From contig CP114117.1 in the NCBI GenBank assembly GCA_029959195.1, forward strand, positions 1,426,001-1,490,000: a stretch of DNA of 64,000 bases, given 5' to 3'. A program made the translations under genes and the position numbers. The number at the start of each line of letters is the position of its first letter. Within the stretch, counting starts at the first letter, position 1. The notes under the pieces are model-generated. The model worked only from the letters and a program-made list of their open reading frames with translations, was not told the origin of the DNA and made no database searches. This document shows positions 13,176-48,896 of this stretch, one piece after another. The stretch comes from Dictyophora rubrovolvata. Taxonomy: Eukaryota > Basidiomycota > Agaricomycetes > Phallales > Phallaceae.

Positions 13176-16100
13176 TTATGATTCCAGATCTTCGTCTTTA
13201 TCTTCTAATTGAGATGGCTTCAGCATGCCTGGGATTCTCATTGCTATTTCACGCTCTGCTTGGGCGCGTTGTTGAGCTTCCGTTTCGCGTTCCTCTAAGA
13301 AAAGTTCTGCATTATCGTCCCCAGAAAATTCTTTCAAGGTGATAAGGAAGTCGCGCATTGTGGACTTGAAGCGAGTAGAATCTTTGTGTTGTTCGATGAA
13401 TGCCTTTACAAAGTGCTCTATTTGGACACTACATCAAGTTAATTGACGTGCCCTTGCTAAATTTCAAGATAAAGACTCACGGCTGGAGATGAGGGAAAGC
13501 ATTCCTCAGGAGGTTTATACAGAATTCGCGCAGATAGGTGGGGTTAGTCATCCCAGCAGGAGTAACACTAGGATCGAACAATGGCTGTTGCACTTGACCT
13601 TCTTCAACCAACTGTATCAAGCGCGCAAGGACAATACATTGTAATTTAAAACCTGAGTGTATATTCAGCCTCCGCGTGATTAATCATAAAAGTTGCATAC
13701 CGCTTTTATGATCTGAATCGGATAACACAAATAAAATATCCTGTATTAACCCCAACAGATATTGTTGGTAAAAAGCATTGGATATCGCGACGTCTGACTC
13801 TGCGAAGTTGTTAATTAACTCTAGGCAAGCTGCAAAACAATTATAAATACAGTTAGAGATGAAGGTGGTATGATGACGTACTATACAAGCCCAGATCAGC
13901 GATGTCTCGCAATGTATGCTTGACTGCCCATGTTATGCTGTCCATGAAAAGCTTGAATTCTTGAGAAGGGATTGATAACATTGCTGCAAGAGAATTCAAG
14001 ACAAAATTCAAAATCGACAGAACAACAACAGACCAGGGAAGCAGAACTGATTGATGGCTCGTAACATTTTGTAAAAACCAACGCGATGCTCCGGATATTC
14101 GGTAAAGTCTTGTGTTATCATATTCAAAGTGACTTCGAAAACAGCATCCAATATGGCCGGCACTTGTTGGATAAGGAGTTCCTAAAGAGAACTCGGTCAG
14201 ACCTCATGAAACGTGATTATACATGCTTAAGACAACCTTCTGCCTCATAGTGATGGTGGTCATAACATTGAGAACTTCGGCGTCCCTAGCCGGGGGAACG
14301 TTTCTATTATAATCACCCAGGATGGCATCCAACAATTGAGGAATGAAACTATTGTTCATTCCTTCAGCATCTTCAGATCGTTTGATATATGTATCCATGA
14401 GTTTCAATATTTCTTTCTTGATGGTACGCAAGCCTCGTACTTTCGGCGTTTTTGTGGCAATGACTCCTTGTTGAGCAACCGTTTCGCTGATTATCCCACT
14501 AACAGCCTTGTACAATCCCAACATATCCAGAAATAAACGTCCAATTTGTGGTAAGTAAAAGGCGCCAATGGAGTTACAAGCCGACACATTGGTTTTTAAG
14601 ATATTAGCCAGAATTTTCACGTTCTCCGGTTGACTTAGAACATCGACGTTAGAAGAAGCTTGGGCCATTAGTGCATCCCACTGTAAACTCGGTTGAGTAT
14701 ATATTCAAATCACGATCATATCTGATATCCTTACAGCTGAGTTCGGAAGTTCCATTAATTTAGCAATTAATTTTTCCTGGGTAGTTCGGTTCGGTTGGGC
14801 AGCAATCATATAGCCGACGGCTTCGTAAAATGTATGCACCTGCAAAGATATGAAATCAACGCACAGAAAAAGCACACAACCACATACCTGTTGTGGAGAT
14901 AGATCAACTGTAATATGCTGTGTTGTACGTAATATTTCATCTACAAATGGTTCGCTTTCGCCGGACTGCTGAATCACGAAATGACGCCGGCACTTCTGTG
15001 CAATCTTAATGAATGTATCACATGCCATGTCTTGCACCCCTAAATTGCCATTTAAAACTGATATGTGGAAATTCAACTATGTCATACATACCTTCATGGG
15101 TTTCGTGCATAAATTCAAATAACTTATTTACCACAGTCTTGAGAAATTTCCAGTGGGCCTTCAGGAATCTGGGATATTGGCCGACAATGTACATAATGTT
15201 TGATGCCACCACAGCTTTGTTATCTTTCCCTCGTTTCGCCTCTGTCAAGCCAAGGAGTTCCCTAATGACGGTAACCAAGAATCGTTTCTCGGTTTCTTCA
15301 TTCATGGCACCAGAAATAGAGCCGATGGCCCAGCATAGTGTGTTAAGGTTATTCCATGACCATTCCGATCCGTCGACTTGCTTTTGTAACTTTTCTGTAA
15401 GAATACTCTCGGTGTCTTGGACGTCCAAATGCGTGAGGTAAACAAGAAGTTCGCGCATCGATTTGTACAATACGATGGTATCACTTTCCTTCATAAACTC
15501 CCGAACTATTTCACCTTCGTCATTTTCAACAATAAGAACCTGTAGCGAAATTAGATAGGTAAACTCGAGATAACGGTTTTACCGACCTCTTCGGGTTTAA
15601 CCATGCGTTCAACCACTACCAGACGAAGATTAGAGAGAACTTCTTTATAAATGTTCTTGCGCAAGTTGATACCGGGGAGCATTCCTGAGTTGCCGCCTAG
15701 ATTCAATCCCATAAGGAGCCCACTTTCACCAATGGGTAAAGTCAATTGTTCGTCATATAAAGGCGCTACAAGTTTCAACCAATATTCGAGACAAATTTTG
15801 AAAATTTCTCGTTCATCTACTTGGCTGATCTTGACCATATAAAGATGCGCGTTCAACAGGACGTCTTTAGATCCGGGGGTTTCCACAGCTCGAAGATGGT
15901 TTGAGAGGAAGTTAAATAAAAAGAGCGCAAGGTTTAGTACTAGTTCCTGGTCATCGTCATTCGACGCTTCGTAGGCGCGAGCAATGTCTATTTTTACTGT
16001 CAAGGACATCTGAGATAGAATAACAAGAAAAACGTACTTGTATTTGGAGGTATCATTCGATTAATAGAGGTCATAACCATAGCGAATAACACCACAAATT

Positions 16101-17246
16101 TGGGATCATATTCTGGCCCTACTGTTAAGCCTGCTATTTCGGATAGACATTTCAAAGTAACATTCCGAAATTCAGGCGTTTCGAGAAACTTGAGGCGATT
16201 AGGGGACGACTATTAAAAAACGAAAAGATACCATGGTGATAGACTTACTCGATTCAAAAGCATATCTATTAATGTAGTTTCGAAAATATAACCTAAGGGG
16301 ATCCAGTTCAAAAATCGAAGCAAGGTCTCCAGAGTTGCTTTGATAAGTGACGGCTTTTGCGCCTTTTCTAGGACTTCGGAGCAGAGCTGAAATATTTCTG
16401 AAAACTCGCCGCACATTTGATATTTGAGGTTCTTGATCTTAGTTTGCGTCATTTGTTCCGCTGAGTAGTCGAATATTTCTTCGCTTAAGAGTTTTAGAAT
16501 CACCATGTTGTTCTCACAAAGCACTAAATTTGTTTTTGATGATTGTACCAGTTCTGGAATGAAGGCCGGCCAGTGATGTGGCCATTCTTGTTTTAAGATC
16601 TGTTACGATCAGGACACGAACTAAACGTCACCGCGATATAAAACTCACCTGTACTAATATCAAATTTAGTTTGTTCATGTAAGTCTTCTCTTTTCGGACT
16701 GCCACCTCATCCGAAGCAACGTTCATAATTACGCCAACAATGAAATTTCGTATTCCTGATAAGGGGATTTGCACTCTGATCATGCAACTAATTGTCATGC
16801 GTACCTTGCCGCTGAGAGTCAGGCAGCGTCTTCCAACGCGTCTGAATAAGTTTCTCAAGTATTTGCAATCCAAGATACTGTCCATAAACATCAAAAAATG
16901 GAACCGCGTTGGATGAAAACACGAACCTTTGATTGGGGATGAGAAGAACTCTCTAGAACTTGGGGTACCCGCTGCCACGCATCAACATTTTCCTGAAACT
17001 GGGTAAGAACTTGTTGCGCTTTTTGTTGCTATTGAAAAGAAATATTCTTAGAAAAGGCTGAAGTCAACGATCTTTGTGAACATACTTCTGGACCTTGTCC
17101 CGAATAAAAGGAAGTCACGACGCGATCAAACAAACCCACATCCAGATCGACTGAAAAGTCAAGGATATTCTGTTTAGCGAATCAATATCAAATGCGTAGT
17201 CGAAAGAGTAGATGTGTACGGATCTACGTACCTCCATAGCTTGCAT
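13176..17246 (-). CDS. CRM1: Exportin-1 / CRM1 (copy 1)
   Basis: The nuclear export receptor for leucine-rich NES cargo, a HEAT-repeat karyopherin beta that works with RanGTP at the nuclear pore. ATG at 17246 gives MQAME, then a phase-0 intron, then [18 protein letters not shown]. At least fifteen exons follow, ending [16 protein letters not shown] at 13176. The CRIME region ([40 protein letters not shown]) and the NES-groove block are intact. The groove block contains [17 protein letters not shown], including the Cys that leptomycin B alkylates in sensitive species. [18 protein letters not shown] is also present. It is the more conserved of two copies in this window. It is divergent from TBP across 509 bp holding a perfect 20-bp palindrome, and convergent with CAF-1. 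Confidence 0.95.
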
Positions 17247-17315
17247 TTGGTCTAGGAAGAGGTCCAGTTGGGCGGCAAGAGACGCTTAGTCAGTTGTCAG
17301 TAGCAGGGAAAGGGT

Positions 17316-17335
17316 GTGACACAATATTGTGTCAC
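17316..17335. promoter_or_regulatory. Perfect 20-bp palindrome upstream of CRM1 copy 1
   Basis: GTGACACAAT followed at once by its exact reverse complement ATTGTGTCAC, 70 bp upstream of the CRM1 ATG. It is a candidate operator for a homodimeric regulator; no specific factor is assigned. Confidence 0.6.
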
Positions 17336-17684
17336 TGCCACCAGGGAGCTGAAATTTGTTGACAGGATTGGCTATCAGAAAAAGGTACGAAAGTCCCAAC
17401 CGGACGGACATTGACTCTGGACATGCTTGTATTGTCCGTTTACTCGGTCTTCTTTACATAACTATTAATATTCACTATTCGATCGAATATAACAAACAAA
17501 ACACTCAGATGCACACTGTATTTGTGAGCTACCAAAAAAATCTTAATGATTAAGCATCAATGATTTCGCAAGAAGCTGGACATTTGTTTTCAGATATACC
17601 CAGGGAGTTTTTAATCTTCAATGGACGTTTTCGGGCGTTTCCGAGATGCTTAGTCATGTGTCGGCTTTCCTCAGTGCGTCGGAG

Positions 17685-17690
17685 TATAAA
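17685..17690 (+). promoter_or_regulatory. TATA box of the TBP gene
   Basis: TATAAA within GGAGTATAAATGGGCG, 66-71 bp upstream of the TBP start codon. Confidence 0.6.
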
Positions 17691-17755
17691 TGGGCGCTTA
17701 GCCACTCTTCCAGCAACCACAACCGCGGCTTGCTTGACTTGAACAGTTATTAGCT

Positions 17756-18846
17756 ATGTCGTCCATGCTTCCCGCCCGTCCTATTGTATTTCCATCGTCT
17801 AGGGCGTATAATCAAGGCACAAATCAGTCCCAAAGCAATCAGTCTGCAACCTCTCAGCCGACGCAACAATCTATACCTCAACCAAGTCAGCAACACTCAT
17901 CCTTACCCCCTCCGTCCATTCCCCATTCTTTAAATCCACCAGTTCCATATCTACCGCCGCCGAATGGACTAGGTTCCTCTCAAATGTTGAATTTATCGGC
18001 TGAGAAGCCTGTGGCTTCTACTTCATCTGTCGTGCCGGGGACGCCACAGCCTTTGACCTTAGAACAACAACATATTACGGCAGTAGATGGAATGGTACCA
18101 ACCCTTCAGTTCGTACCCATGAATAATTTCATCCTTCTCCAGCGTGACAGTAACATTTATATTTGTGTAGAAACATTGTAGCAACTGTCAATCTTGATTG
18201 CAGACTAGATTTAAAAACGATCGCCCTGCATGCTCGCAACGCAGAATACAACCCAAAGGTATATGGTTGCTTGATATGTGTGTGAACTAGGAAACTTCAT
18301 TTTTATTATGTTTCCAGCGTTTCGCTGCTGTCATTATGCGTATTCGCGATCCCAAAACCACCGCATTGATCTTTGCCTCAGGCAAAATGGTGGTTACGGG
18401 AGCAAAGTCGGAGGATGATTCCCGACTGGCTTCCCGAAAATATGCCCGTATCGTTCAAAAGTTGGGATTTGACGCGAAATTCTCAGAGTTCAAGATACAA
18501 AATATTGTTGGCAGCTGTGACGTGAAGTTTCCTATCAGACTGGAGGGACTGGCATACAGTCATGGACAGTTCTCGAGCTACGAACCGGAAGTAAGTTATG
18601 ATTGGGTCTAATGGACAAAGTCTTTTCACCCCAGTACAGCTTTTTCCTGGTTTGATTTACCGCATGATTAAACCCAAAGTTGTCCTTCTCATTTTCGTAT
18701 CGGGAAAGATCGTCTTAACGGGTGCCAAAGTGAGTACTTTACCATGTATGTGGACGTTGATTTACATTTTGTGCTAGGTAAGGGAGGAAATTTATACTGC
18801 CTTTAATACCATATACACGGTGTTATGTGAATTTCGCAAGCCTTGA
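17756..18846 (+). CDS. SPT15: TATA-box-binding protein (TBP)
   Basis: A general transcription factor that nucleates initiation by all three RNA polymerases. Five exons run from ATG 17756 to TGA 18846. Residues 1 to about 118 are a Ser/Gln/Pro-rich, poorly conserved N-terminal arm. After the first intron comes the saddle: [57 protein letters not shown] and [19 protein letters not shown] form the first repeat and the junction. [20 protein letters not shown] then [16 protein letters not shown] form the second repeat, which ends CEFRKP. Both direct repeats of the DNA-binding fold are complete, and all introns keep phase. The gene carries its own TATA element. Confidence 0.97.
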
Positions 18847-18987
18847 AGACGCGTTCAACACCTGAGTGGTCGCAGGTGGTAATTATTGCTAGTGACACTT
18901 TACATACATACTTGTATTATAATGATAATATAGAAAAATGCATTCACTAAACCGTTCTTGAGAATCCCCTCGGTTGACCAACCCGAG

Positions 18988-19659
18988 TCACAGTTCCTTG
19001 CTTTGCTTTGCCTGACACACCTGCAGGCGGATGCTAACACCCGCCTTTCCCCGGGACTTCAGTTCGATATCTTCTTCCTCGTCATCTGGTACCAACTCAT
19101 CCATCACTTCGACAGTACCGGTGCGAATTTCCATTCGGATGTCAGATTGCGCGTATGGAAGGATATCGGGCAATGCCACTGTTAACATCATCAAATGAGG
19201 TATAGCGGCACCCATGGCATGCAGATATAGACTGTCGTTGCTATTACTAGGATATTAGTGTATCCAGATTTCACCGTAGACGATGATGTACCCTTCTTCT
19301 GTTAATATCTTTTTGCACCTGCTTAGATAGGAACCTAATGAGGTTTTCCGAGAAACACAAATAACGGTCTTGTCTTGTTCACCGGACGACTTCTGACCGG
19401 TAGTAGATACGGCAGTGAGAGGTTTCGCAGGGGCTAATTTGCGCACTTTTCCCTTGAAAGATGGTTGTTTCTTTGTTGCTTTCGGCTTGACAGACGAGGC
19501 GTGTTTTTCAGGAGGAGTTGTCGTGTCATCAGTCGAATTTTGTGAAATAAACTCTGATTTATTTGCTGGAGCACCGGGCAACAATTTAATTCGTTTCGAG
19601 GATCCCGTCTGAACGTCCTGCGGGTCCGACTCGTCCGAGCTCTTGCGCTTTGGTGCCAT
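18988..19659 (-). CDS. POP7: RNase P/MRP subunit Pop7/Rpp20 (Alba-type)
   Basis: A likely protein subunit of nuclear RNase P and RNase MRP, which process tRNA leaders and rRNA. Two exons (19292-19659 and 18988-19246) total 627 nt, 208 aa. Residues 1 to about 95 are a basic, disordered arm (MAPKRKSSDESDPQ). The Alba-like core follows with SYLSRCKKILTEEG. After the intron it reads HAMGAAIPHLMMLTVALPDIL and then DIRMEIRTGTVEVMDEL, with an acidic stretch PDDEEEDIE. The last strand region reads AGVSIRLQV. The pattern KxxLTEEG...HxxGAAIPxxxxLAVAL is typical of Rpp20/Pop7. The insertion between strands and the long N-terminal arm are longer than in yeast Pop7. It is divergent from eRF1 with 112 bp between starts. 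Confidence 0.82.
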
Positions 19660-19771
19660 TGACTCAGAGACTGGTGAAAACTATCGGAGTTTGAATAACC
19701 GTTAGCTCGAAAATTTGTCTTCCGTCCCTCTCTCCTGAAGTCGAAGAGCTAAGGCTAGCTACAAAGCAATT

Positions 19772-21469
19772 ATGAGTCAAGATGTGGCTGAACAGAACAT
19801 TCAAATGTGGAAGGTTAAGAAATTGATCAAGAGTCTAGATTCTGCAAGAGGGTTTGTTTATCAATTCGCGATTCCATCGATCATACATCATACGCTAACT
19901 TTGAAGGCTTATAGTGCCGGCACATCGATGATCAGCCTTATTATACCTCCCAGAGTATGACTGTTTTTATCTTCCGAGAAGGCTCTTTCCTCATGAATAT
20001 CGAATTATCAGGATCAGATCTCCCGTGTATCGGCCATGTTAACTCAAGAGTTTGGAACCGCTTCAAACATCAAATCGCGGGTCAACAGATTATCTGTGTT
20101 GGCTGCAATTACCAGTACCCAACAGCGATTGAAATTATACAATCGTGTGCCGCCTAACGGGTTAGTTTTGTTTGTCGGAACCATTCTCACCGATGAAGGC
20201 AAAGAGAAAAAAGTTTCTTTCGATTTCGAACCTCACAAACCTATCAACACGTATGTCATTCTTTTTCCCTACTTTTCTTTTGTGAATATTCATTTAATAA
20301 AACTTAGCTCCCTCTATCTTTGCGATAACAAATTCCATACGGAGGCTCTTTCCGAATTGCTCGAATCCGATTCAAAGTTTGGCTTCATTGTGATGGACGG
20401 CAACGGCACACTCTTTGGTGCCTTGGCAGGAAACACCAGGGAAATTACCCAGAAGATTACTGTCGACCTTCCCAAGAAACATGGCCGTGGTGGGCAATCT
20501 GCCCTTCGTTTTTCTCGTCTACGAGAAGAAAAGCGTCACAATTATGTCCGCAAAGTCGCCGAATTAGCTGTTCAACATTTTATCACTAATGATAAAGTCA
20601 ATGTATCGGGATTGGTTCTTGCCGGTAGTGCAGACTTTAAGACCGAGCTCAGTCAAAGCGACATGTTTGACCCAAGATTGGTTGCCAAAATCATCAAAGT
20701 CGTCGATGTCAGCTATGGAGGTGAAAATGGTTTTAATCAGGTACACACAATTCCTAATTCGACATCGTGGATACTTACCCCGGTTCTTAGGCAATTGAGC
20801 TTGCTGGGGAAGCCCTAGCCAATGTCAAATTTGTTCAAGAAAAAAAATTGATCCAACGTTATTTCGATGAAATCAGTCAAGACACTGGAAAATATTGCTT
20901 TGGAATTGATGACACTTTGAAAGCCTTGGACCTTGGCGCAGTCGAGACATTGATCGTCTGGGAAAATTTGGATATCATTAGACATACTCTCCGTAACGCA
21001 GCTGGAGGTGAGTCGTATTTGTTCTTTCTTTCTTGTTTGTATATCTTACCTATGTGCAGAGGAAATTGTTGTTCACGTCAACAAGGAGCAAGACAAGGAC
21101 AAAGAGAAGTTCACCGATAAATCTACTGGAACAGAAATGGAGCAAGCTGTAGAGCCCCAAAGTTTACTTGAATGGTTTGCCGAGAAGTACAAAGACTTCG
21201 GTGCCAATTTGGAGGTATTTATTCAGTTCGCAAACTGGGAGAGCGCATTTAAACATTATAATAGTTTGTCACGAATAAATCTCAAGAGGGAGGTTGGTAC
21301 ATCAGCTTGACCCCGTGTTGGGTTGTATCCTAATCACGATGTTCTAGCTCAATTCGTGAAAGGCTTCGGTGGCATTGGCGGCTTACTTCGTTATAAAGTT
21401 GACTTCACTAATCTCGCCAGCGTCGATGACGATGAAGAAGAGTTCTACACAGATGACGAAGCTCTCTGA
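19772..21469 (+). CDS. SUP45: Eukaryotic peptide chain release factor eRF1
   Basis: A cytosolic translation terminator that reads all three stop codons and triggers peptidyl-tRNA hydrolysis with eRF3. ATG at 19772, about eight exons, stop TGA 21469. Domain 1 carries the stop-codon reading motifs: the TASNIKS motif ([17 protein letters not shown]) and YxCxxxF (LYLCDNKF). Domain 2 carries the catalytic GGQ loop in [20 protein letters not shown]. Domain 3, which binds eRF3, ends with [18 protein letters not shown] and an acidic tail [16 protein letters not shown]. The intron phases restore [14 protein letters not shown] across the last junction. No variant is seen in the stop-recognition motifs, so standard decoding is expected. 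Confidence 0.97.
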
Positions 21470-21824
21470 CGGTTTTGTTGGCTCCTTCAAAGGAGCCTCG
21501 ATTGGGATGCTGAGCGCTCCCGGACGGGGCTCGCGGGGGTTGTGGGGTGCAGGTAAAGGGAATTTCCAGATATTTGGTTGATTGATAATAACCTTGGAAG
21601 CTGCAGTGTGCGGTTAAGTCTTTTTATTGCGAGTTATGCTTGGAAGACGTCTGAACATTACAACTGTATTTTCTCGGTACGTGGTTTTATCGTTACGAAT
21701 ACGACACGACTAAATGAGTATGAAAGGCTTATTGAGATAAGGTCCAAGCAGCCGAGTTGTAAACCAATGATGGTGTTCTCTACCAGTTCATCTTCTTTGT
21801 TTTAAATACATTGGTTATTGTACA
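21470..21824. other. Convergent 3' flanks of eRF1 and PLP2, 355 bp
   Basis: Only 3' flanking sequence is seen between the two stop codons. A short G-rich run lies near 21520-21560. No gene is supported. Confidence 0.6.
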
Positions 21825-22744
21825 TCATAAATCAAAGTCGGAATCGGAATCTTCTTTTGCTGTTCGATTTAGCTGTTTTGAGGAATGCCTCGGAGCGTCT
21901 TCTTCTAAATCTGAGTGACTCGACGGGTTCAATCCTCTTGGTTCGCGAGGCGACGTTATGGCCAACGATAATATTAATAAGGCTTCTAACTCTAAGGATA
22001 AGGTTTCTTTGAGTTGGCATTAGCTGGTTGAACACAACTTTGCTGACATACCCGCCATGGATCGCTCTTTGTCCGTTCCCCATGATAATGTTTGCCGCGT
22101 TACTTCTCCTGCACGATACACAAGTATTGTGGGACAATGGTTATCGGCATAATTGGGGACGCATTTATCACCAACGATGGAGATAAACTTAGTAAAAGGA
22201 TACTGCTTTGCCAGGATATTTGCTTGATCTAACAAGCGGATACTAGCAGGTTGACTCTCGAATGTCTCAAATTAGTCTTCATCAGGACAGTTCAATATGA
22301 CTGCTCACCCTTCTTTGTATAAGATGCAAACTACGCCGGTCCCTTTTATTTGATGCTCTGCAGATACATCGACTTTACTGGCCTCCGTTACTTCTCTGGT
22401 ATAATCTTCACGACCGATAGGGTAAACGCAACCGAATTTGGCAGTAAGCTCAATCTGCTTTAGTTCTGCAAGTCTTTGACGGCGGTAAGCAGTAATAGCT
22501 CTCTCGGTTTCGGAATCAGCAGCTTCATCCTCCAGCTGTTGAAGTTCAGATGCTGATGTCTGTTCTAGAATATTCTTTAGCTTTGGACTAGAAGGAGGAG
22601 ATGGTGTCGGAGGGGTTTGCTCTCGTGGTGGCAAGATACCATGTTTCCGAAGAGCATCATTGCTACGTAAAGCAATAAGTCGTCAATGATGGAGCATAGT
22701 TAACAGACATACAATTCTGTATCTTCATAAGCATTCGCTGCCAT
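21825..22744 (-). CDS. PLP2: Phosducin-like protein, PLP2/PDCL3 family
   Basis: A thioredoxin-fold co-chaperone that helps CCT/TRiC fold actin and tubulin. ATG at 22744 gives MAANAYEDTEFNDALRKHG (first intron after EDTE), matching the family's DTEWNDILRxxGILPP start. Next come ILPPREQTPPTPSP and the helical segment ETERAITAYRRQRLAELK. GCVYPIGREDYTREVTEAS and VVCILYKEG lead into the thioredoxin domain, with NILAKQYPFTKFISIVGDKC and VPNYADNHCPTILVY. A final intron joins the SMA motif to ELEALLILSLAI. The protein ends with the acidic EDSDSDFDL, as in other members. The stop is at 21825. It is divergent from MRP10 with 104 bp between starts. Confidence 0.92.
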
Positions 22745-22848
22745 TTTGTATTTGTGCAACTTATCGAGTCCGAGTCAAAGATCTTAGTCAGCAGCTGGAA
22801 GACGCTTTTGCCAGCCATCGTTTGACAGTGTCTCTATTGGTATTCTAG

Positions 22849-23202
22849 ATGACTATAAAAAAGCTGAAAGTTCGACCGAAAAAAAGTAAGTTGATGTTTT
22901 CCTTTAATAATTTCTAAAGAATCGAATGTACCCTCCTAGTTCCACCGCCGAATCCCTGTTCCGTGGAACTTGCTAGCATGCTTGGATGTTGGGCGAGCAC
23001 CGGGGACATTCTAGGTCGCGACACAAAATGTGCGGAAGCGGCCAATGCACTTCATGATTGTATGAGAAAAGCGGTGATCATAAATAATCTTCATTTTCAT
23101 GGCGGTCTTTAACTGATTATTGCCAATTAGCCGTTACAACGTCGTGGTCAAGCTCCAACCATTAATTATCACCTTTCACGCCTGAGCAAACTTACAAAAT
23201 GA
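22849..23202 (+). CDS. MRP10: Mitochondrial small-subunit ribosomal protein Mrp10 (mS37), twin CX9C
   Basis: A CHCH-domain protein of the mitoribosome small subunit, imported by the Mia40 route. Three exons (22849-22885, 22940-23073 and 23131-23202) give 80 aa. The start is MTIKKLKVRPKK. Two CX9C motifs are exact: CSVELASMLGC and CAEAANALHDC, the latter followed by MRKA. The C-terminus is PLQRRGQAPTINYHLSRLSK. Length and motif spacing match the family. All introns are in phase. Confidence 0.95.
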
Positions 23203-23277
23203 AAGATGGGCAGCGAACCCGTGCTTGGTATACCACCAACTGGTGCAAGATATTAACTTTAATTATATACATCAACG

Positions 23278-26220: not shown

Positions 26221-26366
26221 GTCGGCAAGCAGCTGCAGGAAACACCCAAAATTCAATGAGCCTCAAAGCTATTATGTGAGCGCGGAAGGCATAAGCAGTC
26301 AAAACTCAGCCGCCACTGGCAGAAACTCGGCTGAAGGTCCACCAACTGTTACATAACAGTTTCATT

Positions 26367-29026: not shown

Positions 29027-29077
29027 AAATGTCCTTAATATGACTTTACGAAACCTGTGAAACTTTTGGTATATGTT

Positions 29078-32055
29078 CTAAGCATCAGTTTCGGCAAATG
29101 TTAATGGTCGGAAAGGCTGAATGGTCTTAAGTCCTGATAGCAAGAAATGTAGTGACGAACTTACATATCCTCCGGCCTCATAATGTTTCCCGTTGGCTTC
29201 GACCCAATGCAAACGTAAGGCATGCAGGAAAGCAGACAGTCCCTAGGAGATATTGCTCGTTATGATTGTGCTGCGTGATATATGAACCTTAACGAACCTC
29301 CATTAAGCATAGGACACCGACGGTCGCTGAAGCCCAAAGGCAAAAAATCGCTGCAAGGAAAACATAATCAAGTATTCCCGCAGGCGCCAAGAATGACCCA
29401 ATTGTCATACTCCATAAAACCGAGGACAGTTGAGCGTGAGCAAGAGATAGTGCCCACAAACGCAAATACGATGCGGTATTAGAAATACAACCAAGACAAA
29501 ACTCAATAGTATGTATGATTTGGTGAACCATTACTTCGCTGAAATCATGCTAGAAATGAAAGATGAGATCAAAAGACGGAAAGAAAAATTATATAAACCT
29601 CGCCATCGTCATCGGCAGCTGTGGCAGATACAGCCGCCTCACCTTCTTCTTCATTTTGCAAGTCGGTATCGTCCCTTACACCAATTTGGCTATACCCTGC
29701 TTTGTGGGCCTTTATTTCTTTCCAGACGAAATATGGCTTAGCGCAGAGCATCCACGGAACACATATAGCAGCGACCAAGATCAGCGCAATCTGAACGAAC
29801 ACTTGTCCGCTGAAAAGCTGCTCTCCAGGCCTTACAGTGCCAGGGGATAGAAACATGTATATCAGCATATTCAACAAACTAGGAGGTTGAGTTGTTGCTG
29901 TAGACCAATCTGTTGACCATTTCATGATGATGCAAACCACAAGATAACCAAATATGGATTGCAAAAAGAGCAACTGAGGAACGAATTCCGCATAAATATT
30001 GGAACTTCGTCCGAAATGCAAATGGTTTGGCACTTGCAAACAAAGCGCAAAAGTCATCTAATTGAATCTAAGTTCCATGGCGTTGAATTTGAACAGAGAA
30101 AAGCATACATGGATTACTCCAATGATGATGGAAAGTTTCATTTTATAAGAGTTCGTGAATGTTAATCCATTCTCAGCGCCATGCCAACCAGGGTCGAGCC
30201 CGAACGGATAAACAGTCCCACTGGCAACGCCTTCTTTCCTTCCGGGTAGAAAGCTCCAGCCAGAGGGCCACAGGTGTAACACTCGAGAAAATATGTCATT
30301 ATACAACAATCCGGTGTATATAGAAAATAGTCCCATCAGAAGGATGATATAACGGCCACTATAGCTCCAGGTTAGCTCGAGAATAAGAATATTGGATATA
30401 ACTCATACTAGAAGAATATTTCGAATATCTACGAATTCTGTTAGCGAAGAAAATAAATTTGAGGGTCAAACATACCTCGCCATTTTTAGCCCTCATGAGC
30501 TTACGTTCATTGTAAATCATGTACAACGCTGACATCAAAACGATAAAACCGTGTCCAATATCGCCAAACATCACGGCGAATAAAAACGGGAACGTGATGA
30601 CAGTAAATAAACCAGGATTGACTTCTTGGTAAGTAGCAATGCCGTAACTATCGATGAGGGTTTGAAAGCCCTCCGTGACTTTATTGGTGCGATGGAATGT
30701 AGGAGGTTTCATCCTGGTGGGCAAGACTTGCAGTATTGGAGGCACGCTTGCGTTAGACTCCTCCTTCAAGCATATTAGTAATTAGTTCCCGAGAAGAAAA
30801 TTTCTGCTTACCGTAGCATGTCTCAAAGCCAACTGGATCATAACAATGTCTCTGGTGGGACACCAACCCTCTGCTATAAGGGTTTTTCGTCGCGCATCAT
30901 AATTAAATAAGTTAAGCGTTTCATATATAAGCTTCTCTCGTCTAATAAAGTCCTGCCAGCTGGAGATATTCTCTTCTACGCGGACAAGCTCTTCTCTTCT
31001 AGTAGTCCCAGTACTGTAAAGTACCAACTGAAGATCTTCCAAGCGTGTATTAAGCTCCTTAAGAGCCTCGGAGCGACGGTCAGCATCGGCATCAATTCCA
31101 TACAGCGTAGCACTCATAGAATCGGCGACCTTACGAACTTTAGTTAAGAGATATTCGCCGTGGACGAAGATAATGAACACAGATTTTCGATATTCGGTTT
31201 GGGTAATAGGGTCTTTAAATGGCTCGGGTATGTTGATATAGTTCATATAAAGATTACCTCTGAGGACTCGCCATAATATACGCTCAAATATGGCCAAACG
31301 AGCACTATCGACCGTCCCGGCAATAAACCTGAATTTCAAGTAAAACAAAAGAGCCGGACAATGTAATATAAGTACTCACTCCAAGTCCAGAGATGTAGCT
31401 CCTGAAAGAACTTGGGTTTCATGCTCGTCATGTGCCAGTAAAGGCTGAGAGCTATCATCGATAGAAGTACGAATGTCTCGTTCATGGTCTTGGGCTTTAT
31501 TGAAAAAGGTCGCTGTTTCTCGAAGGACATGTCTGGCTTCAATAAGCTCGCGAGTACGATCACTCAGGGTTTGGTAGCTTTCATTCATTTGAATCATCCT
31601 CTGTTCACGTTCTTTAAGGTTCGCTTCCAAGGAATCCATAGCTTGAGGTAAGCCAGGTCCAACAGTGACAAGAGGAACAGATTCTGTTGAAGATCTGATT
31701 GAAATCTTGTCCACTTCTTTCTCGATTTGATCACGGAGAAAGCGTCCACGACGTGCCATCTCGTCGAGTCGACGAATCTCCCCAACAAAAGAGCGCTGAA
31801 ATGGGGTTATATCTGGATTAAGCTAAAAATCATCTGAGTCAGTAAGCACATATACAAGGACCAGGGATACAAACGTCTTTGAACTGGACATTGCCAAGTT
31901 CACCTAACTCAGAGACTGCGTCATGAGCTGCCTCAACTGGAATAATGAGGCGCACCAGGCTCATCTCCTCTGAGCCTATAAAGAATTAGCACTATAAAAG
32001 ATCATCCATCAATCACGCGAAACCCACGATATAGGCTTGGATATTCCTCCCCCAT
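29078..32055 (-). CDS. VPH1: V-type proton ATPase subunit a (Vph1/Stv1)
   Basis: The membrane subunit of the vacuolar H+-ATPase Vo sector that forms the proton half-channels. ATG at 32055 gives MGEEYPSLY, then a phase-1 intron, then [20 protein letters not shown] and [17 protein letters not shown]. The cytosolic half includes [20 protein letters not shown] and coiled-coil helices. The membrane half has [25 protein letters not shown] and further hydrophobic helices. The essential Arg helix is present as [16 protein letters not shown] (equivalent to yeast Arg735). It ends [16 protein letters not shown], then a last exon ending [10 protein letters not shown]. The stop is at 29078. Only one a-subunit gene is seen here, so Vph1 versus Stv1 sorting cannot be told. 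Its start lies 95 bp from the divergent TIP/ITFG1 gene. Confidence 0.95.
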
Positions 32056-32150
32056 GGTTTTGTGGTAGAGGTCAAGGTCAAAGGCGTAATCGGAGGTCCT
32101 AAACTTGGCACTCCTGGGCGCTTAAGTACTACTGGAGTTCTGAAGCGGCG

Positions 32151-34737
32151 ATGTATCCGCTACGTACTCATTTATGTGTTATTTTCTTCGCTTCGGGACT
32201 ATCAAGTGCATTATGGCCGTTCGGTTCAAGAAGATTTACTAGCAATTCTCTCATTAACGCAGGCTCCCTGGGACTTGATTCCACCAGTAGGGTAATAGCT
32301 TTTGGCGATTTCAACGGGGACCAGTCGTGGGTTGCATCACTTTCCTGGTTAATATTAATGCTCATAGACATAAGACTAGATATTTTGACACTTGACGTGG
32401 AACAAAAAACAATAACCGTGTGTATCTGGAACCATGGTAATTCTGGGATAGATCCAGTTGTATCTGGACTGATTACATAGTGCATCATAGAGAAATTCAC
32501 TTTTCAGCCCTCAATTACTCTTCGTCATCAACAGCTCATAAAAAACGCTGTTCCAGGAGATTTTAATAATGATGGTCGGCTTGATCTTTTGGTTATGAAT
32601 GACGGTGCAAAGGGCGAAAATACAATGTCTCTTTACTTTTCAAGTTTGGTTCATGGTTTTAGTGCGTTCTTTTATGCCTGCTATGTTCAGAATGTTTATA
32701 TCCGAAGCAATAGACGCGGCAATAGAGGTCCCTTCGTCCACATCAGCCCAGCCTTTTCTTATTGATTCAAATGGTGACATGAAAATTGACCTTCTCGGTA
32801 CATCGCCTTTAAGCGATCAACCAATTGTGCTCTGGAAGAACATATGGAACGAGACTAGTGGAAGTAGTGAAATTTTTCGTTTGTAAAAAGCATTATACCT
32901 GATTTGTGGCTGGCGCATGACTACGCTTCCAGGACAGACCCACTTTTTCAAGGAGGTGTGCCATGTAATGTTCCCGACCCTCACAGTAACGCCTTCGTCG
33001 ACTTGGATGGAGATTGCTTAGCAGGTGTGATCTTCCTAAAAACTCTTAACTTCAGCTTACACATTATTAGATATTTTTCTTGTATGCCAGAAACGAAACT
33101 CTCGGGAAAAAACCTTCCAGATCTGGCTCAATTCTCCCGAACGAAATGGCTTTCACATCGGATTGTCTGGTCAACTACCAGATGGAGCAGGCTCCATTAC
33201 ATTTGCAGACATGGGTGAGTGCATTGCTCAACAAGTTGGATCTTCTCGAAGTACTTTCAGATCGCGACGGAACAATTGACATGATTTTTCCCACATGTAA
33301 ATCAATCGACTCTGGCCTTGGAATTGGTCGCAGTTGTTACCTAAACATTGTCTACAATAAACAATGCCCTTTGTGTAAATCCTCATCCGACTTTCAAAAA
33401 AAAAGTGATTGTCGACTTCCGGGAAATTTATGCACGAAGGATCCCGATTTTCACTTCGATTTTTCCGAAGATAACAACGACGTGAGCATCCTGGATTTAT
33501 AAATGCCATGAGTTTGAAAATATTTCCAATAGGGATTCGTCCGCATTGATCTAGGCTCTTTTTTCCCTTTCAACGCTCTCTTAATGAGTGATATTACTCA
33601 TAACCCCCCGCTCCCCGTTGCCTTTAGAGTCGGTGACTTGAACCTGGATGGCTATCCAGATATTATTGCCATCGGAGTATCTGAATCCGGTAACAGAACA
33701 CCCTACATTTTGAACTCTGTTCAATGTTCTCACAACATAGCGGGTTGCGGGCCCGGGACGAAAGGCCGTCGCGGCTTCCAAATTGCCACCAAGGGAACAG
33801 AAATCATGAAACATGTAATTGATGCAAGAGGAGTTGCCGTAATGGATTTGGACGAAGACGTAAGCTTTAATATTTGGAAAATCTTCAACTATTAAAGGCG
33901 CTTTTGCCAGGGAACTTTGGACATATTAATACAAAGAACAGGGTCACAAGGCGAAGGCACAATCGCCTTTATACACAACAACTTTTTCTTTGATGCCTTT
34001 TTTCTAAAAGCAATGGGTTCGTGTCATGTGCCTTTCCATCTCTTTGTTAACTCGATATTCTCATTAACAGTGATGAATCGTCCCTGTGACGGGATTCACT
34101 GCGGAACGCACAATAGTTCAATTTACGATGTATGTGTCCGCCTTGTCCTAGTTATGGATACCTTTATTAATAAGTATTGTTAGTCATACGGGGTAAGCTA
34201 TCCAGGGGCGACTTACAAGTATACGGTTCAAGATACTTCTGGTAGACGAACCGCCGCCCAAGGTTTGTGCTTACCAATACTCCACGTATTGTACCATCAC
34301 TCAAAAGGTGGACCTAGTCCCACAATTGCCGCAAACTTCTTATCATTCATTGCATACCCCGTATTCCTTTTTTGGTCTTGGACGAACAAACAATTATATC
34401 GAAAACTTGTTTGTTGGGTCGACCAAAAGACAAGACACTTTCATTAATATGGAAGGCGTTATTCCCAATTCCAAAGTAATCATAACCCCTTCTTCCCCAG
34501 ATGGGAGCTTTGGGTGGAAAAAGGAGTTATTTCTCAGACCCGGTGCTTGGATTCCATGGGTAACGCTAACGCTTGTTGTGTCAACGATTGTTTTAGCCAT
34601 CATTGTATTGTTCTTGCATTTCAACGAAAAGGTTTGTTTTAAAGTTAATATGTACCTAAATTTCTGATCATTTTTTAGAGAGAGGATGAATTAGAACGAC
34701 GCCGGGCATCCCATCATATAAATTTCGATGCGCTATG
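32151..34737 (+). CDS. T-cell immunomodulatory protein (TIP/ITFG1, Linkin) homologue with FG-GAP repeats
   Basis: A type I membrane protein with a beta-propeller of integrin-like FG-GAP repeats. ATG at 32151 opens with a signal peptide (LRTHLCVIFFASGLSSA). Ca-binding-like loops follow: IAFGDFNGDQLDILTLD, VPGDFNNDGRLDLLVMND, LIDSNGDMKIDLLG, ITFADMDRDGTIDMIFP, RVGDLNLDGYPDIIAIG and VMDLDEDGTLDILIQR. A Cys-rich insertion lies near NKQCPLCKSSSD. A luminal beta domain precedes one membrane span (WVTLTLVVSTIVLAIIVLFL) and a short tail EDELERRRASHHINFDAL. The stop is at 34737. About a dozen introns are present. In animals the family is linked to adhesion and tubulin/RUVBL binding. Its role in fungi is not established. 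Confidence 0.9.
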
Positions 34738-34743
34738 AAAAGT

Positions 34744-35857
34744 CTAAGCCACTCCTGCATATTTATTCGTCAATACCCATCTCCCATCAGCTTTCTGATC
34801 GTCTAAACATAGTACAACTTGGTTTTTTTCCAGTTTTAATAAATGTAGGTACAAACTACCAGCCGCTGGATCCCACAATGATTTCGGGTAATCGGCGTAG
34901 ATCTTCGATACTAGCTCTCTGATAGTCCAAATATAAGTCCCATTAGGTGACAAGGACGTCAGATGTTGTAGGATTTGATTTTCACGTTCAATGCGATGAT
35001 CGATATATTCTTTTATCAGTTTTGGACCATCGCTTACAACAGATCCGTGTCCAGGATATAGTTTCTGGAAAGCTTGTTCATCATTGAAGTGAAGCAAACT
35101 TTGCAGGCTCTGCATGTACACGAAAAGATCCTCAAAAACTGCAGTGCCATGGCCCAAGACAGTATCCGCAGCGAAAAGGGCCTTTTCTTCTGCTAAATAT
35201 AGGCATATAGAGTCTGTGGTATGACCTGGTGTATGGAGCACCTGCAGAGTACAGCCGGGTGATGTTAAAAGCTGCGCTTGTTGTAAGAGATGGAAGCCAG
35301 GACCGAAGCCAGAGGCCTTAATATAAGCATCAGAGGGTGCCTTCTCTAACAAACCCAGGATGTTTTCGTCACCCTGAAGAATGGGGTATTTGTGAATTCG
35401 AGGAGGGGGATTAGTTTTAAAGTTATGCAACCGCAGAAGATTAAGCACGGAGGGCAATCCATCTGTATGATCATGGTGACGGTGCGTCAAAATGACATCG
35501 GAGACGAGTTGTCTAGAAGGATCGCCATGTTGATTTAAAGCCAGTTCTAGTTCTTTAATATATTCTTCTTTTCCTTCTCCCGTATCTATGAGGATAAAAG
35601 GGTTTGTTGTACCGACCAGGTAGGTATTTGTTCCTACATTATTTTAGATGACCTGGTGTCGGAAAACTTCAGCACAAGATTTATCTACCTTGCAGCGTGA
35701 ATTTTCCAGGATTCTATACGTTGAATTAGTGCTCCTTATGAACAACTATATGAGGTATATTAGCCGACCTGGCCAAGTATTCGAATAACCCTCGAGTTTA
35801 ACTAGATGAAGCTATATGTCAGCTCAACACCGGGACGCAGATCGTAATCAATGACAT
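34744..35857 (-). CDS. Metallo-beta-lactamase-fold protein, LACTB2 family
   Basis: A zinc hydrolase of the LACTB2 type; the human member is a mitochondrial single-strand endoribonuclease. The large exon carries the metal ligands THRHHDHTDG, then LHTPGHTTDSIC, FAADTVLGHG and LYPGHGSVV, all intact. The winged C-terminal part reads RELVSKIYADYP with LYLHLLKLEKNQVV. Upstream exons give SRVIRILGQ, NPGKFTLQ and GTNTYLVGTTNPFILIDTGE, joined in phase and matching the family N-terminus. The start at about 35857 (MSLITICVP) is tentative because the first exon is short. The stop lies 6 bp past the end of the convergent TIP gene, so the 3' UTRs must overlap. Confidence 0.85.
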
Positions 35858-35976
35858 CCTTACACGAGCTATTGATGGTAGAGGCTCTAGAGTAGGCATA
35901 TAAATCAGCGGTTGCTTCGAATAGCTAAAGAGTTTGACGAGAACTTCCTGATCTTGAGGTTAAGTCCTTCTACGTC

Positions 35977-35989
35977 ACGCGTCACGCGT
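35977..35989. promoter_or_regulatory. Tandem MluI cell-cycle boxes upstream of CRM1 copy 2
   Basis: Two ACGCGT motifs, at 35977-35982 and 35984-35989, are separated by one base in the 231-bp gap between LACTB2 and CRM1 copy 2, about 100 bp from the CRM1 start. A double MCB is a typical MBF target arrangement; function is inferred. Confidence 0.55.
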
Positions 35990-36088
35990 CAGTGCCGTTG
36001 TGTACGCCGAATGATCGCTGTCAGTATTTCAGCCTATGCAGCGTTGAACGTTCGTGTAAAGACTTCCCGCAATTCTGCGCCCCATCTC

Positions 36089-39000
36089 ATGGAGGTAAAT
36101 CATGTGATGAACTCTCGCTAGTAGTTCGTAATTACAAGCCATCTCCCTGAGAAACAGGCTATTTTGAATTCTTCAGGCGATCTTGATACTCGTCTATTCG
36201 ATAACGTGGTCAAGACGTTTTACACAGGGACTGGATATGAAGTATGCACCGGCGGTCGCATTTTTAATGTCTATTCATTGTTATGCATCAGCGAGAGGTT
36301 GCTCAACAAATATTGACGCGGTTTCAAAATCATGCGGACTCATGGCAACGTGTTCCAAAAATTTTAGAGGAATCTTCAGTTCCAGAAACCAAAGTGAGCT
36401 CATAATATGGCAGTATATTCATTGCTCTCACAGTGTATTGGTAGTACCTTGGTTTACAAATATTAGAAAGACTTATTCAAAGCAGATGGAAATCTATTCC
36501 TGAAAGCCAACGAATAGGAAGGTTTTTCCTTGCTACTACCAATCATTGATATATTCTTATTAACTAGATCTCACGTATGCAAACAGGAATTCGACATTTC
36601 GTCATGGGAATAATTACCAAAGCAACTGCTGAAGGACCGGGAATGCGAAAAGACAGGCCTTTTGTGAATAAACTAAACTTAATTCTAGTTCAAGTATTGT
36701 GCCCCGTACTTCCAGGTGTCTCATTTACTGATGAGTTATAGATCCTGAAACGTGAATGGCCTCACACTTGGCCTACATTCATCTCCGAGCTTGTGCAATC
36801 TTCAAAAATAAACGCGACAATATGTGAAAATAACATGGCCATCTTGAAATTGCTTAGTGAAGAGATCTTTGATTTTTCCGCGGATCAATTAGTTCAAGCT
36901 AAAATCAATGAATTGAAGAATTCCATGTGCGGAGAATTTTCTCAGATCTTTCAATTATGCTTGGATGTCCTCGAAAAAGAGCAGAAAATCTCCTTAATCC
37001 AAATAACATTAGAAACATTGCTACAGTTTCTGAATTGGATTCCTCTTACTTATATATTCGAAACTTCTCTCATCGACATGCTATTGACACGGGTTAGTAT
37101 CAGATTCTTTGGTGAAGTTAAGCTGACGCCACTTTAGTTCTTGGAAACTTCGGAATTTCGTAATCCGACCTTAAGATGTCTTTCCGAAATTGCTGCTTTC
37201 AACATTGGTTCAGAGTATGACCCGAAGTTCGTTATACTATTTGCTATGGTCATGGCCGCGGTAAATCGCATGCTTCCACCTAATACTGGTGCGTAATACC
37301 TAATCATGATGCACAATCGCTCAATAATTGAAAATACCTTCATAATCTCTAGACATCGCAGAAGTCTACAAGGATTCTCGAAATGATGATCAAGACTTCA
37401 TTTTGAATCTTTCCTTGTTCCTGACAAATTTTCTTTCCAACCATCTCCGAATACTTGAAACTTCCCGGTCTAAGGACGTGCTTCTCAATGCTCATCTCTA
37501 TCTTATCAAGATTTCTCAGGTGGAGGAACAAGAAATTTTCAAGATTAATCTTGAATATTGGGTTAATTTTGTAGCAGAAATGCATGGCGAGATGCAGAAT
37601 GCTTCCGTAGGTTGGGAATTCATCTATCAATAGTTCAAGAATCAGACTGAACTCCATTTTCGCAAGATGCTGCTGTTCGACGAGACATATATGTTGATGT
37701 CCTGTCGAACGTCCGGCTTGTAATTATTGAGAGGATGGTGAGGCCGGAAGAAGTATGTATCACTGATACTTCACAACTTTTTGCTGAGTTAACTAGGTGC
37801 TCATATTTGAAAATGAAGAAGGCGAAATGGTTCGAGAATCTTTGAAAGACGGTGATACCGCGACTCTGTATAAATCCATGCGGGAAGTCTTGGTTTATCT
37901 TACTCATTTGGATGTCGATGACACAGAGGATATTTTAACGGAGAAAATGCTGCAACAAGTGGATGGATCAGAGTGGTCGTGGAATAAACTGAATACCTTA
38001 TGTTGGGCTATTGGATCTATCTCAGGCGCAATGAGTTGGAATATGCTGTTATTTGTCTCTTCCATTTACTTACAATAAACTTTAGGTGAAGAAACTGAAG
38101 GACGGTTTTTGATAGCCGTGATTAAGGATCTCCTGGGTTTGTGCGAAACAAAACAAGGTCAAGACGACAAGGCTGCTATAGCGTCAAACATCATGTACAT
38201 CGTCGGGCAATATCCGCGGTTTCTCAGAGCTCATTGGAGGTTCCTCAAGGTTGTGGTGAATAAATTGTTTGAATTTATGCATGAGCCTCATAAAGGTATG
38301 GCAAATACGTTTGCATTGGCACCCTTTTTAAACGATGTCGTCGCTTTATACAGGAGTGCAAGATATGGCCTGTGATACTTTCATTAAAATCGCTCAAAAA
38401 TGCAAACGACAATTTATCATTCAACAATCGGAGGAGAGTGAACCGTTCGTGGGGCATATCATAAGCTCTTTGGGTGAAATAACTGTAGATCTTGCCCCAA
38501 AACAGGTAAGGTATACTTTGATGCCAAACAATATCTAAAACGTTCTTACATTGAAAGTAGGTTCACGCTGTCTATGAAGCGATAGGTTATATGTTATCCA
38601 TGCAAACAGATAAATCAACTAAAGAGAAACTGATTGCCCATTTGATGGAACATCCAAATCGTGCTTGGGACACTTTAATAGCACAAGCTGGAAGTGTTGA
38701 TATACTTGACAGCATCAACGATTTGGAGGCCATTAGTAATATTCTGAAGACGAATACTGCTGTCTGTACCTCAACAGGAAGTTCTTATATCTCCCAGCTT
38801 GGCCGGATTTATCTCGATATGCTTGGCTTATATCGAGCGTGCGGTGGTATCATAAACCAACCACCATGGCGAGCGGGGTTGTCTGCAGCCAGGACACCAC
38901 AATTTCGTCTTTTACAGACCATACGAGACGAAGTCCTCAAGCTCGTAGACGTATTTATCAAAAAGGCCGATGATCTTGATGCCATCAGTGATAGTTTAGT

Positions 39001-40218
39001 TCCACCTCTGCTCGATTCGGTACTAGGGGACTATGCCAGCAATTCGGGAGCGTCTGAGCCGCGTGTTCTGGATCTATTGATTACTCTTATTAGTATTCTG
39101 GAGGTGACGTTTAGCACATTTTCAAATAATTCTACCACGGGAGTTGATCGAAACATACAGAGTCGATTTAGCCCTCATATTGGAGCGATAATGGACTCGA
39201 TCATTGAGACGACGTTGTGCATGATCAATAATAATTTTACAGAATTCCCTGAGCAGCGCGCTAGCTTTTACAGGTTGTTACGAGCGATTAATCTTCACTG
39301 TTCCAATGGTATGCCATCTAGAGGCAGCCTCGAATTCCAAATACCTATTTATGTTATTATAGCACTTCCTTCTTTCCAGTCTAAACAGTTGAAACTGGTC
39401 ATGGACAGTATATTATGGGGCATGAAGCACAGCCTACGGGACATATCAGATTTGGCTCTGACAAGTAAGACTATTGTATTAGCTGCGACGCTGACTTCCA
39501 CGCTTCTAACGTGTTGCCTAGTTTGTTACGAGGTCATTGAAAATCTCTCTAATCAAGATCCAGCCGTAGCGAGAGAATTCTATGGAAGATTTTTATTACA
39601 AATCCTGCGAGATACGTTTGGAGTAATCACGGATGCTAACCACAAAAGCGGTACGGCGAGATTACTTCAACGGTTACGCGTTACGCAGTATACTCACACA
39701 CTTGGCAGGTTTTCGATTGCAGAGCCAACTACTTGCCAAGGTTTTTGAGCTAGTACAAACTGGACGTGTTTCTATTCCTCTTTTTGATCCGGTGCTGGTA
39801 CCGGATCCTAATATAACGAATCTGGAGTTTCTGGATGACTACTGCCTCAATCTTATTCAAAATGCTTTCCCTGATTTACAAACGTATGCCTTGCCCTTGC
39901 CCTTGCCCTTGGTTTAACAGTGTTTTAACTCAAATATCTATTTTTAACGATAGACATCAAACGAGGACATTGCTCACGACCCTATTCCAATATTACAACG
40001 ATCTTCCGCGCTTCAAGTCGGCCCTGCGAGACTTCCTTGTTCAATTAAGGGAATTTTCTGGAGATAATGCCGACCTTTATCTGGAAGAAAGAGAGAAAGA
40101 ATCCCAGAAAGGCGCGCAGGAAAGGCTTGAAGTAGCAATGTGGATACCGGGGATGGTTAAACCGAACCAATTGGAAGATAACGAGGACCATCATGATATA
40201 TATGTCTCAGGATCATGA
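36089..40218 (+). CDS. Exportin-1 / CRM1 paralogue (copy 2), diverged but intact
   Basis: A second full-length exportin-1-type HEAT karyopherin. ATG at 36089 sits in a 6-nt first coding exon (ATGGAG). The next exon gives [20 protein letters not shown], with the intron at the same place as in copy 1. Conserved blocks are [54 protein letters not shown] (leptomycin-site Cys kept), [19 protein letters not shown] and [16 protein letters not shown]. The C-terminal block is [20 protein letters not shown], and the tail ends [11 protein letters not shown]. Apparent stops, for instance near 37633 and 39747, fall inside introns that restore phase. It lacks about 18-20 residues of a loop present in copy 1 ([16 protein letters not shown] region). 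By eye it is about two-thirds identical to copy 1 over well-aligned stretches. It looks like a functional, subfunctionalised copy rather than a pseudogene. Confidence 0.9.
39888..39911 (+). repeat. CCTTGC hexamer repeat inside a CRM1 copy 2 intron
   Basis: About four tandem CCTTGC units directly follow the donor site of the penultimate intron. Confidence 0.75.
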
Positions 40219-48826: not shown

Positions 48827-48896
48827 ATCGCGCACGCGAAGTCACATGGTCACAGTTGACTCTTCCGCGTTAAACGTTTCCCTCACATAAGATCCA

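What the first reader, a model, noticed from the sequence alone, without database searches (positions are those of the whole stretch)
13176..40218. Two intact exportin-1 (CRM1) genes 19 kb apart in inverted orientation
Both 13176-17246 (-) and 36089-40218 (+) encode full-length CRM1-type proteins. They share the first-intron position and the NES-groove [12 protein letters not shown] motif. CRM1 is an essential, usually single-copy gene in fungi (established knowledge). Retention of a diverged copy with all splice phases intact suggests subfunctionalisation, such as separate cargo sets or stages, rather than decay.
Basis: partly seen in the sequence, partly recalled or inferred. Interest (0 to 1): 0.8.

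Follow-up and report, generated by a model that had tools for sequence, protein, structure and literature searches.

The report
Ancient second exportin-1 gene, possibly failing
This genome carries two very old copies of the usually single gene for the main nuclear export receptor; the second copy changed its cargo-binding groove and evolves faster, and in this sequence one of its splice signals looks broken, so it may be on the way to being lost.

Summary
Both genes are real and lie exactly at the stated coordinates. Copy 1 (17246-13176, minus, 17 exons, 1078 aa) is an ordinary, consistent CRM1/exportin-1 gene. Copy 2 (36089-40218, plus, 18 exons, about 1059 residues) has the same Pfam parts. 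They share 15 intron positions and phases, but only 59.7% of residues, and fourfold sites are saturated. A four-sequence ML tree pairs them in 200 of 200 bootstraps, with the duplication about half way back to the split from the fungal outgroup; copy 2 evolves about 3.4 times faster, yet omega is far below 1. Copy 2 lost conserved basic residues beside the NES groove (human R532, K534) and has Cys at the leptomycin-B position 528, where copy 1 has Thr. 'All splice phases intact' fails at one place: the position homologous to copy 1's intron-4 donor reads GA (36518-36519), and the nearest GT (36522) shifts the frame. I found no stop or other frameshift. Copy 2 was therefore selected for most of a long history and is now a recent loss, an atypically spliced gene, or a gene with a one-base consensus error. 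No fungal relatives or RNA were available to decide.

The parts
13176..17246 (-). Copy 1: CRM1/exportin-1 gene, 17 exons, 1078 aa; Thr at the leptomycin position
   Evidence: Spliced model, 16 of 16 introns GT-AG and in phase; PDB exportin-1 matches; six Pfam CRM1 parts
36089..40218 (+). Copy 2: diverged CRM1/exportin-1 paralogue, 18 exons, about 1059 residues if intron 4 is joined at the homologous place
   Evidence: Exon-by-exon reading in two open blocks of 88 and 970 residues; PDB matches; Pfam
36518..36586 (+). Copy 2 intron 4 as defined by homology (phase 1, as in copy 1); begins GA, not GT. Nearest GT (36522) changes the frame; retention meets a stop at 36547-36549
   Evidence: same alignment column and phase as copy 1 intron 4 when exon 4 is taken to end at 36517
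38142..38171 (+). Copy 2 groove segment [10 protein letters not shown]: Cys at human position 528, Q at 532, Q at 534, D at 536
15216..15245 (-). Copy 1 groove segment [10 protein letters not shown]: Thr at human position 528; R532, K534, N536 kept
37611..37666 (+). Copy 2 intron 8, no counterpart in copy 1
   Evidence: 15 shared, 1 copy-1-only, 2 copy-2-only
38035..38085 (+). Copy 2 intron 10, no counterpart in copy 1; weakest donor of those scored
14681..14734 (-). Copy 1 intron 11, no counterpart in copy 2

Best explanation
Copy 1 is the working, housekeeping CRM1. Copy 2 is an ancient duplicate of one gene (not of a segment) that was kept for a very long time as a second RanGTP-dependent NES receptor. 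It kept the groove positions checked (I521, L525, A541, M545, F561, V565, K568, F572) but lost conserved positive charges beside the leptomycin position, which should weaken or re-select the NESs it binds (inference). In this assembly a mismatch at the donor of its intron 4 leaves no good in-frame way to make the full-length protein, so the sequenced allele is most likely recently disabled or much reduced. Shown: gene structure, divergence, rate difference, groove substitutions, donor mismatch. Inferred: export activity, altered cargo choice, recent loss.
For: Two gene models at the given coordinates; 15 shared intron positions and phases. The copies pair in 200 of 200 bootstraps; the duplication lies at 52% (39-64%) of copy 1's path back to the node shared with the two outgroups. 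Fourfold sites 53 of 218 identical against 25.7% expected at random. Pairwise omega about 0.03; omega = 1 gives lnL -7535 against -7164. Of 955 shared columns 77 are changed only in copy 2 and 25 only in copy 1, p = 2e-7; ML rate ratio 3.4 (2.5-5.3). R532, K534 and N536 are the same in human, Chaetomium, copy 1 and yeast, but Q, Q, D in copy 2. In the human snRNA export complex R532 and K534 contact PHAX M139, E140 and T142, at the end of its NES (PMC12350170, passages). The donor position reads GA; the GT four bases on shifts the frame. No stop in 1058 codons; the other 16 introns are GT-AG. A copy free of selection for more than about 0.015 substitutions per site should already show a second stop or splice-dinucleotide lesion (95%).
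Against: The mismatch rests on one base of one assembly; a consensus error would make copy 2 intact. Six in-frame GT-AG joins exist in the stretch examined; the mildest (36522 to 36656) drops 22 residues and makes a 135-base intron, where the other introns of both genes are 44-70 bases. The age assumes that copy 1 kept an even rate. The tree has four sequences, and the raw site patterns favour the pairing only modestly (33 against 18 and 11; p = 0.049 for 33 against 18). No relative was found that shows copy 2 in another species, so its age is not confirmed independently.
Confidence: 0.55

Rival explanations
1. Copy 2 is a fully working second exportin-1 and the GA donor is a one-base consensus error in the assembly (or one haplotype of the culture).
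For: No stop or other frameshift in the rest of the gene; strong long-term constraint; without the +2 base the site at 36518 scores 5.88, inside the range of the 32 other introns (-2.26 to 9.30).
Against: Nothing in the sequence points to an error; reads are not available.
Confidence: 0.25
2. Copy 2 works and intron 4 is spliced from a non-canonical GA-AG site, perhaps inefficiently, so that splicing throttles the amount of the second exportin.
For: Position, phase and acceptor agree with copy 1's intron 4; the rest of the gene is open.
Against: GA-AG introns are very rare in general (recalled, not tested). The full score at 36518 is 1.6 and that of the nearby GT is 4.7; with 32 introns and pseudocounts the model understates the cost of losing the GT.
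Confidence: 0.1
3. Copy 2 is a plain decaying pseudogene that was never of long-term use.
For: Faster evolution, the donor mismatch, and weaker donors on average than copy 1 (5.8 against 7.1).
Against: Omega far below 1 at saturated synonymous divergence. About 129 stops are expected per neutral substitution per site, so even 0.02-0.05 would leave about 3 to 6; none is seen.
Confidence: 0.04
4. The two loci are an assembly or haplotype artefact.
For: None found.
Against: They differ in 40% of residues, lie on one contig with different neighbours, and the Xpo1 search shows no third CRM1-like copy.
Confidence: 0.01

Closest known systems
CRM1 / exportin-1 / XPO1 (solved human, yeast and Chaetomium chains; organism names recalled, the listings say only exportin-1 or CRM1)
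   Same: Length, six Pfam parts, and the groove positions I521, L525, A541, M545, F561, V565, K568, F572 in both copies
   Different: Copy 2 has Q532, Q534, D536, R560, V564 and S444, is 19 residues shorter than copy 1 in one loop upstream of human about 405, and has the intron-4 donor mismatch
Arabidopsis XPO1A / XPO1B
   Same: Two exportin-1 genes in one genome; single mutants look normal, double mutants were not recovered, and XPO1A has its own role under heat stress (PMC3980095, passages)
   Different: The plant pair is 86% identical (same source); this pair is 59.7%
Fungal CRM1 made leptomycin-sensitive (A. nidulans kapK1 allele, PMC4488483, passages; yeast T539C, recalled)
   Same: Copy 2 carries Cys at that position by nature; copy 1 has Thr like yeast and Chaetomium
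   Different: Copy 2 lacks the neighbouring basic R532. Nearby basic residues hydrolyse the bound lactone (PMC4588050, passages); that R532 (yeast R543) is one of them is recalled

Membership tests
CRM1/exportin-1 | IBN_N, Xpo1, CRM1 repeats and CRM1_C in order | tested here: met
   Copy 1 in one protein; copy 2 across its two blocks on either side of intron 4
CRM1/exportin-1 | Closer to CRM1 than to other exportins over full length | tested here: met
   Best PDB matches are exportin-1 for both (1397 and 1033 bits); exportin-5 reaches 42 and 26 bits
CRM1/exportin-1 | NES-groove core positions and the K568 filter | tested here: met
   I521, L525, A541, I544, M545, F561, V565, K568, F572 the same in both copies; T564 is V in copy 2. 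A541, K568, F572 as groove residues: PMC11674046, passages; the other labels recalled
CRM1/exportin-1 | Basic residues R532 and K534 beside the groove | tested here: not met
   Met in copy 1, not in copy 2 (Q, Q). I treat this as a feature of specificity, not as a defining feature of the family
CRM1/exportin-1 | Complete, spliceable coding sequence | tested here: inconclusive
   Met in copy 1; copy 2 fails at the intron-4 donor under canonical rules
CRM1/exportin-1 | RanGTP-dependent NES export | not testable with these tools
   Needs biochemistry

The most novel reading that the evidence does not exclude
Copy 2 is a live, ancient second NES receptor of this fungal lineage, with a de-charged groove edge that exports its own class of cargoes, natural leptomycin sensitivity beside an insensitive main copy, and output throttled through a GA-AG intron.
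Probability: 0.12. Interest if true: 0.7.

Novelty: new variant of a known kind. Interest (0 to 1): 0.45.

Why it matters
CRM1 carries hundreds of cargoes through one groove that is described as seemingly invariant (PMC5358978, passages). An old natural paralogue with a changed groove edge would show which positions can be retuned. With Thr in one copy and Cys in the other, leptomycin B might block the copy-2 route alone (inference). If copy 2 is being lost now, it is a view of the end of a long-kept duplicate of an essential gene.

Tried and rejected
Relatives: pattern scans of viral contigs and prokaryote genome contigs with six short peptides of copy 1 found no encoded relative (0 of 4 and 0 of 19 pattern-matched stretches). 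Such scans reach only close relatives, and neither collection is of fungi. No fungal genome collection was available, so no fungal CRM1 tree, no branch-specific dN/dS and no RNA test.

Naming the species: one rDNA locus was read (L006), but there was nothing to compare it with; part of it is masked and was left alone. It is not a tool result.

Segmental duplication: 369 window frames of 60 aa or more were compared with each other; of 15 pairs listed at E 1e-4, 14 join the two CRM1 loci (two of them in the wrong frame or strand) and one is local, at 18291-18774. The script printed each pair in one direction only, and shorter exons were not compared. Gene conversion: no sign; longest identical coding run 14 bases. 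Drug self-resistance by duplication: not favoured, since the extra copy has the sensitive Cys and the main copy has Thr; 12 of 20 frames scanned with Pfam (of 51 of 130 aa or more) matched, none suggesting a toxin-type cluster. NG86 dS was infinite and the ML dS (about 10) is beyond use.

Papers: four searches for a doubled fungal CRM1 listed 2, 2, 0 and 1 papers, none about it by title and abstract start (listings only); most subscription papers are not in the library. Sun et al. 2013 is not held. PMC4596688 had none of the terms sought. PMC4752587 was seen in passages and adds only that leptomycin B acts on CRM1 through a cysteine.
Full report
Observation. The window lies on contig 1 of a 28.2-Mb, 11-contig assembly. 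I built both genes by hand. Copy 1 runs from 17246 to 13176 on the minus strand in 17 exons and encodes 1078 aa; its 16 introns are GT-AG, 47-62 bases long, and keep the frame. Copy 2 runs from 36089 to 40218 on the plus strand in 18 exons. The genes are transcribed toward each other from 5' ends 18.8 kb apart on the inner side of the pair, that is, divergently: each reads away from the stretch between them. A Pfam Xpo1 search of the assembly gives five matches: these two (130 and 118 bits) and three weaker ones (37, 28, 25 bits) at two other loci, presumably other exportins.

Identity. Both proteins match solved exportin-1 chains (copy 1: 1397 bits over residues 16-1073 to 4fgv; the 970-aa part of copy 2 after intron 4: 1033 bits in two stretches). 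The listings name the molecules but not the organisms; that 4fgv is from Chaetomium thermophilum, 3gb8/11rm human and 3vyc yeast is recalled. The Pfam parts of CRM1 are found in both, in copy 2 across the two blocks. The genes share 15 intron positions with the same phase; copy 1 has one of its own, copy 2 two (taking copy 2's exon 4 to end at the homologous place).

The broken point. In copy 1 exon 4 ends in phase 1 at a GT donor. In copy 2 the same alignment position (36518) reads GA followed by AGGT; the only GTs between 36445 and 36546 are at 36452 and 36522. Using 36522 with the normal acceptor shifts the frame and ends after about 104 residues; retention meets a stop after about 98. I listed in-frame joins for GT, GC and AT donors at 36450-36546 with acceptors up to 36700. 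Six are GT-AG. Five start at 36452, inside the conserved YLGLQ sequence, and remove nearly all of exon 4 or more; the sixth, 36522 to 36656, removes 22 residues of the N-terminal region, which in CRM1 binds Ran (the CRIME domain, PMC4588050, section 7). Two GC sites (36482, 36506) and two AT sites (36542, 36545) would also join in frame with the normal acceptor while losing or gaining several residues. So a shortened or altered product is possible, but 'all splice phases intact' is not correct. The other 16 introns of copy 2 are GT-AG, and the two reading blocks (88 and 970 residues) hold no stop. One of those 16, the copy-2-only intron at 38035, has the weakest donor of the 32 scored.

Age and selection. 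The copies are 59.7% identical (628 of 1052 columns). Copy 1 is 60.0% identical to Chaetomium and 56.2% to human; copy 2 49.6% and 49.1% (the two outgroup sequences lack their ends). On 955 columns shared by the four, an ML tree (LG+F+G4) pairs the copies in 200 of 200 bootstraps, with branches of 0.153 (copy 1), 0.535 (copy 2) and 0.147 before the duplication. If the copy-1 lineage was even in rate, the duplication is about half as old as the split from the Chaetomium lineage (39-64%); that is an inference. Raw site patterns agree modestly: 33 columns for the pairing, 18 and 11 for the alternatives, p = 0.049 for 33 against 18. Fourfold sites are saturated (53 of 218 identical; 25.7% expected at random). 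Pairwise codon ML gives omega 0.03; its dS is beyond use, but omega = 1 is worse by 371 log-likelihood units. This is an average over both copies. Copy 2 alone has changed 77 columns that the other three share and copy 1 alone 25 (p = 2e-7). The excess is strongest at human 801-900 (15 of 41 columns otherwise the same) and weakest at 121-230 (3 of 53). With about 129 expected stops per neutral substitution per site, a copy freed from selection for more than about 0.015 substitutions per site should show a second stop or splice-dinucleotide lesion. So copy 2 was under selection until very recently, or still is.

What changed in the groove. The cysteine that leptomycin B modifies is human Cys528 (PMC4588050, passages). 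It aligns to Thr in copy 1 and Chaetomium and in yeast, and to Cys in copy 2. Close by, copy 2 has Q for R532, Q for K534 and D for N536, and further on R for K560 and V for T564; human, Chaetomium and copy 1 agree at all five. Yeast has R, K and N at the first three. K568 and the groove positions listed in the membership table are unchanged. In the human snRNA export complex R532 and K534 contact PHAX M139, E140 and T142 and strengthen the NES interface (PMC12350170, passages); K568 is a selectivity filter (PMC5358978, passages). The acidic loop, whose docking near HEAT 11 and 12 is thought to drive cargo release (PMC4588050, section 7), lies by recall at human about 423-448, and there copy 2 has its own changes at 433, 436 and 444. 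My reading is that copy 2 keeps the general way of binding NESs with weaker electrostatic help, and so would favour another, probably narrower, set. Nothing was measured.

Surroundings. The neighbours that matched Pfam are ordinary genes: chromatin assembly factor 1 subunit A beside copy 1; an eRF1-family gene, a CBF/Mak21-family gene, a V-ATPase subunit, an ITFG1-like gene and a metallo-beta-lactamase-fold gene between the copies; an SRR1-domain gene after copy 2. The frame comparison found no other doubled gene (with the limits given under Tried and rejected).

Verdict. A real, ancient, faster-evolving second CRM1 with a changed NES groove, probably specialised for most of its history, whose present state is uncertain because one splice donor is non-canonical. 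Doubled exportin-1 is known in plants (PMC3980095, passages). For fungi four searches listed no paper on it, which is weak evidence given the library's limits.

Noticed in passing
57712-61324 (-): Frames with RNase III, Dicer dimerisation and helicase C domains: a Dicer-like gene, so RNA silencing is probably present.
   Followed up: no
730-2022 (+) and 42129-43190 (-): The longest of 8 of the 20 scanned frames without a Pfam match at E 0.001 (431 and 354 aa).
   Followed up: no
18291-18774 (+): Two neighbouring frames resemble each other (42% over 43 residues), a possible small internal repeat.
   Followed up: no
48891-49673 (+): Ndc80/HEC kinetochore domain downstream of copy 2.
   Followed up: no
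38035 (copy 2, intron 10): Very weak donor (TGA|GTTGGA, lowest of the 32 scored); copy 2 donors score lower on average than copy 1's (5.8 against 7.1).
   Followed up: partly
genome G000: C8:1797427, C8:1807952, C2:2622909: Three 5.8S rRNA matches on two contigs; the C2 one scores lower (151.5 against 157.7 bits; 39 of 989 candidates scored, so a lower bound).
   Followed up: no
genome G000: C10:270933-271281 and C8:1648634-1648777: Ran_BP1 domain matches at only two loci, so the RanBP1 partner does not look doubled along with CRM1.
   Followed up: partly
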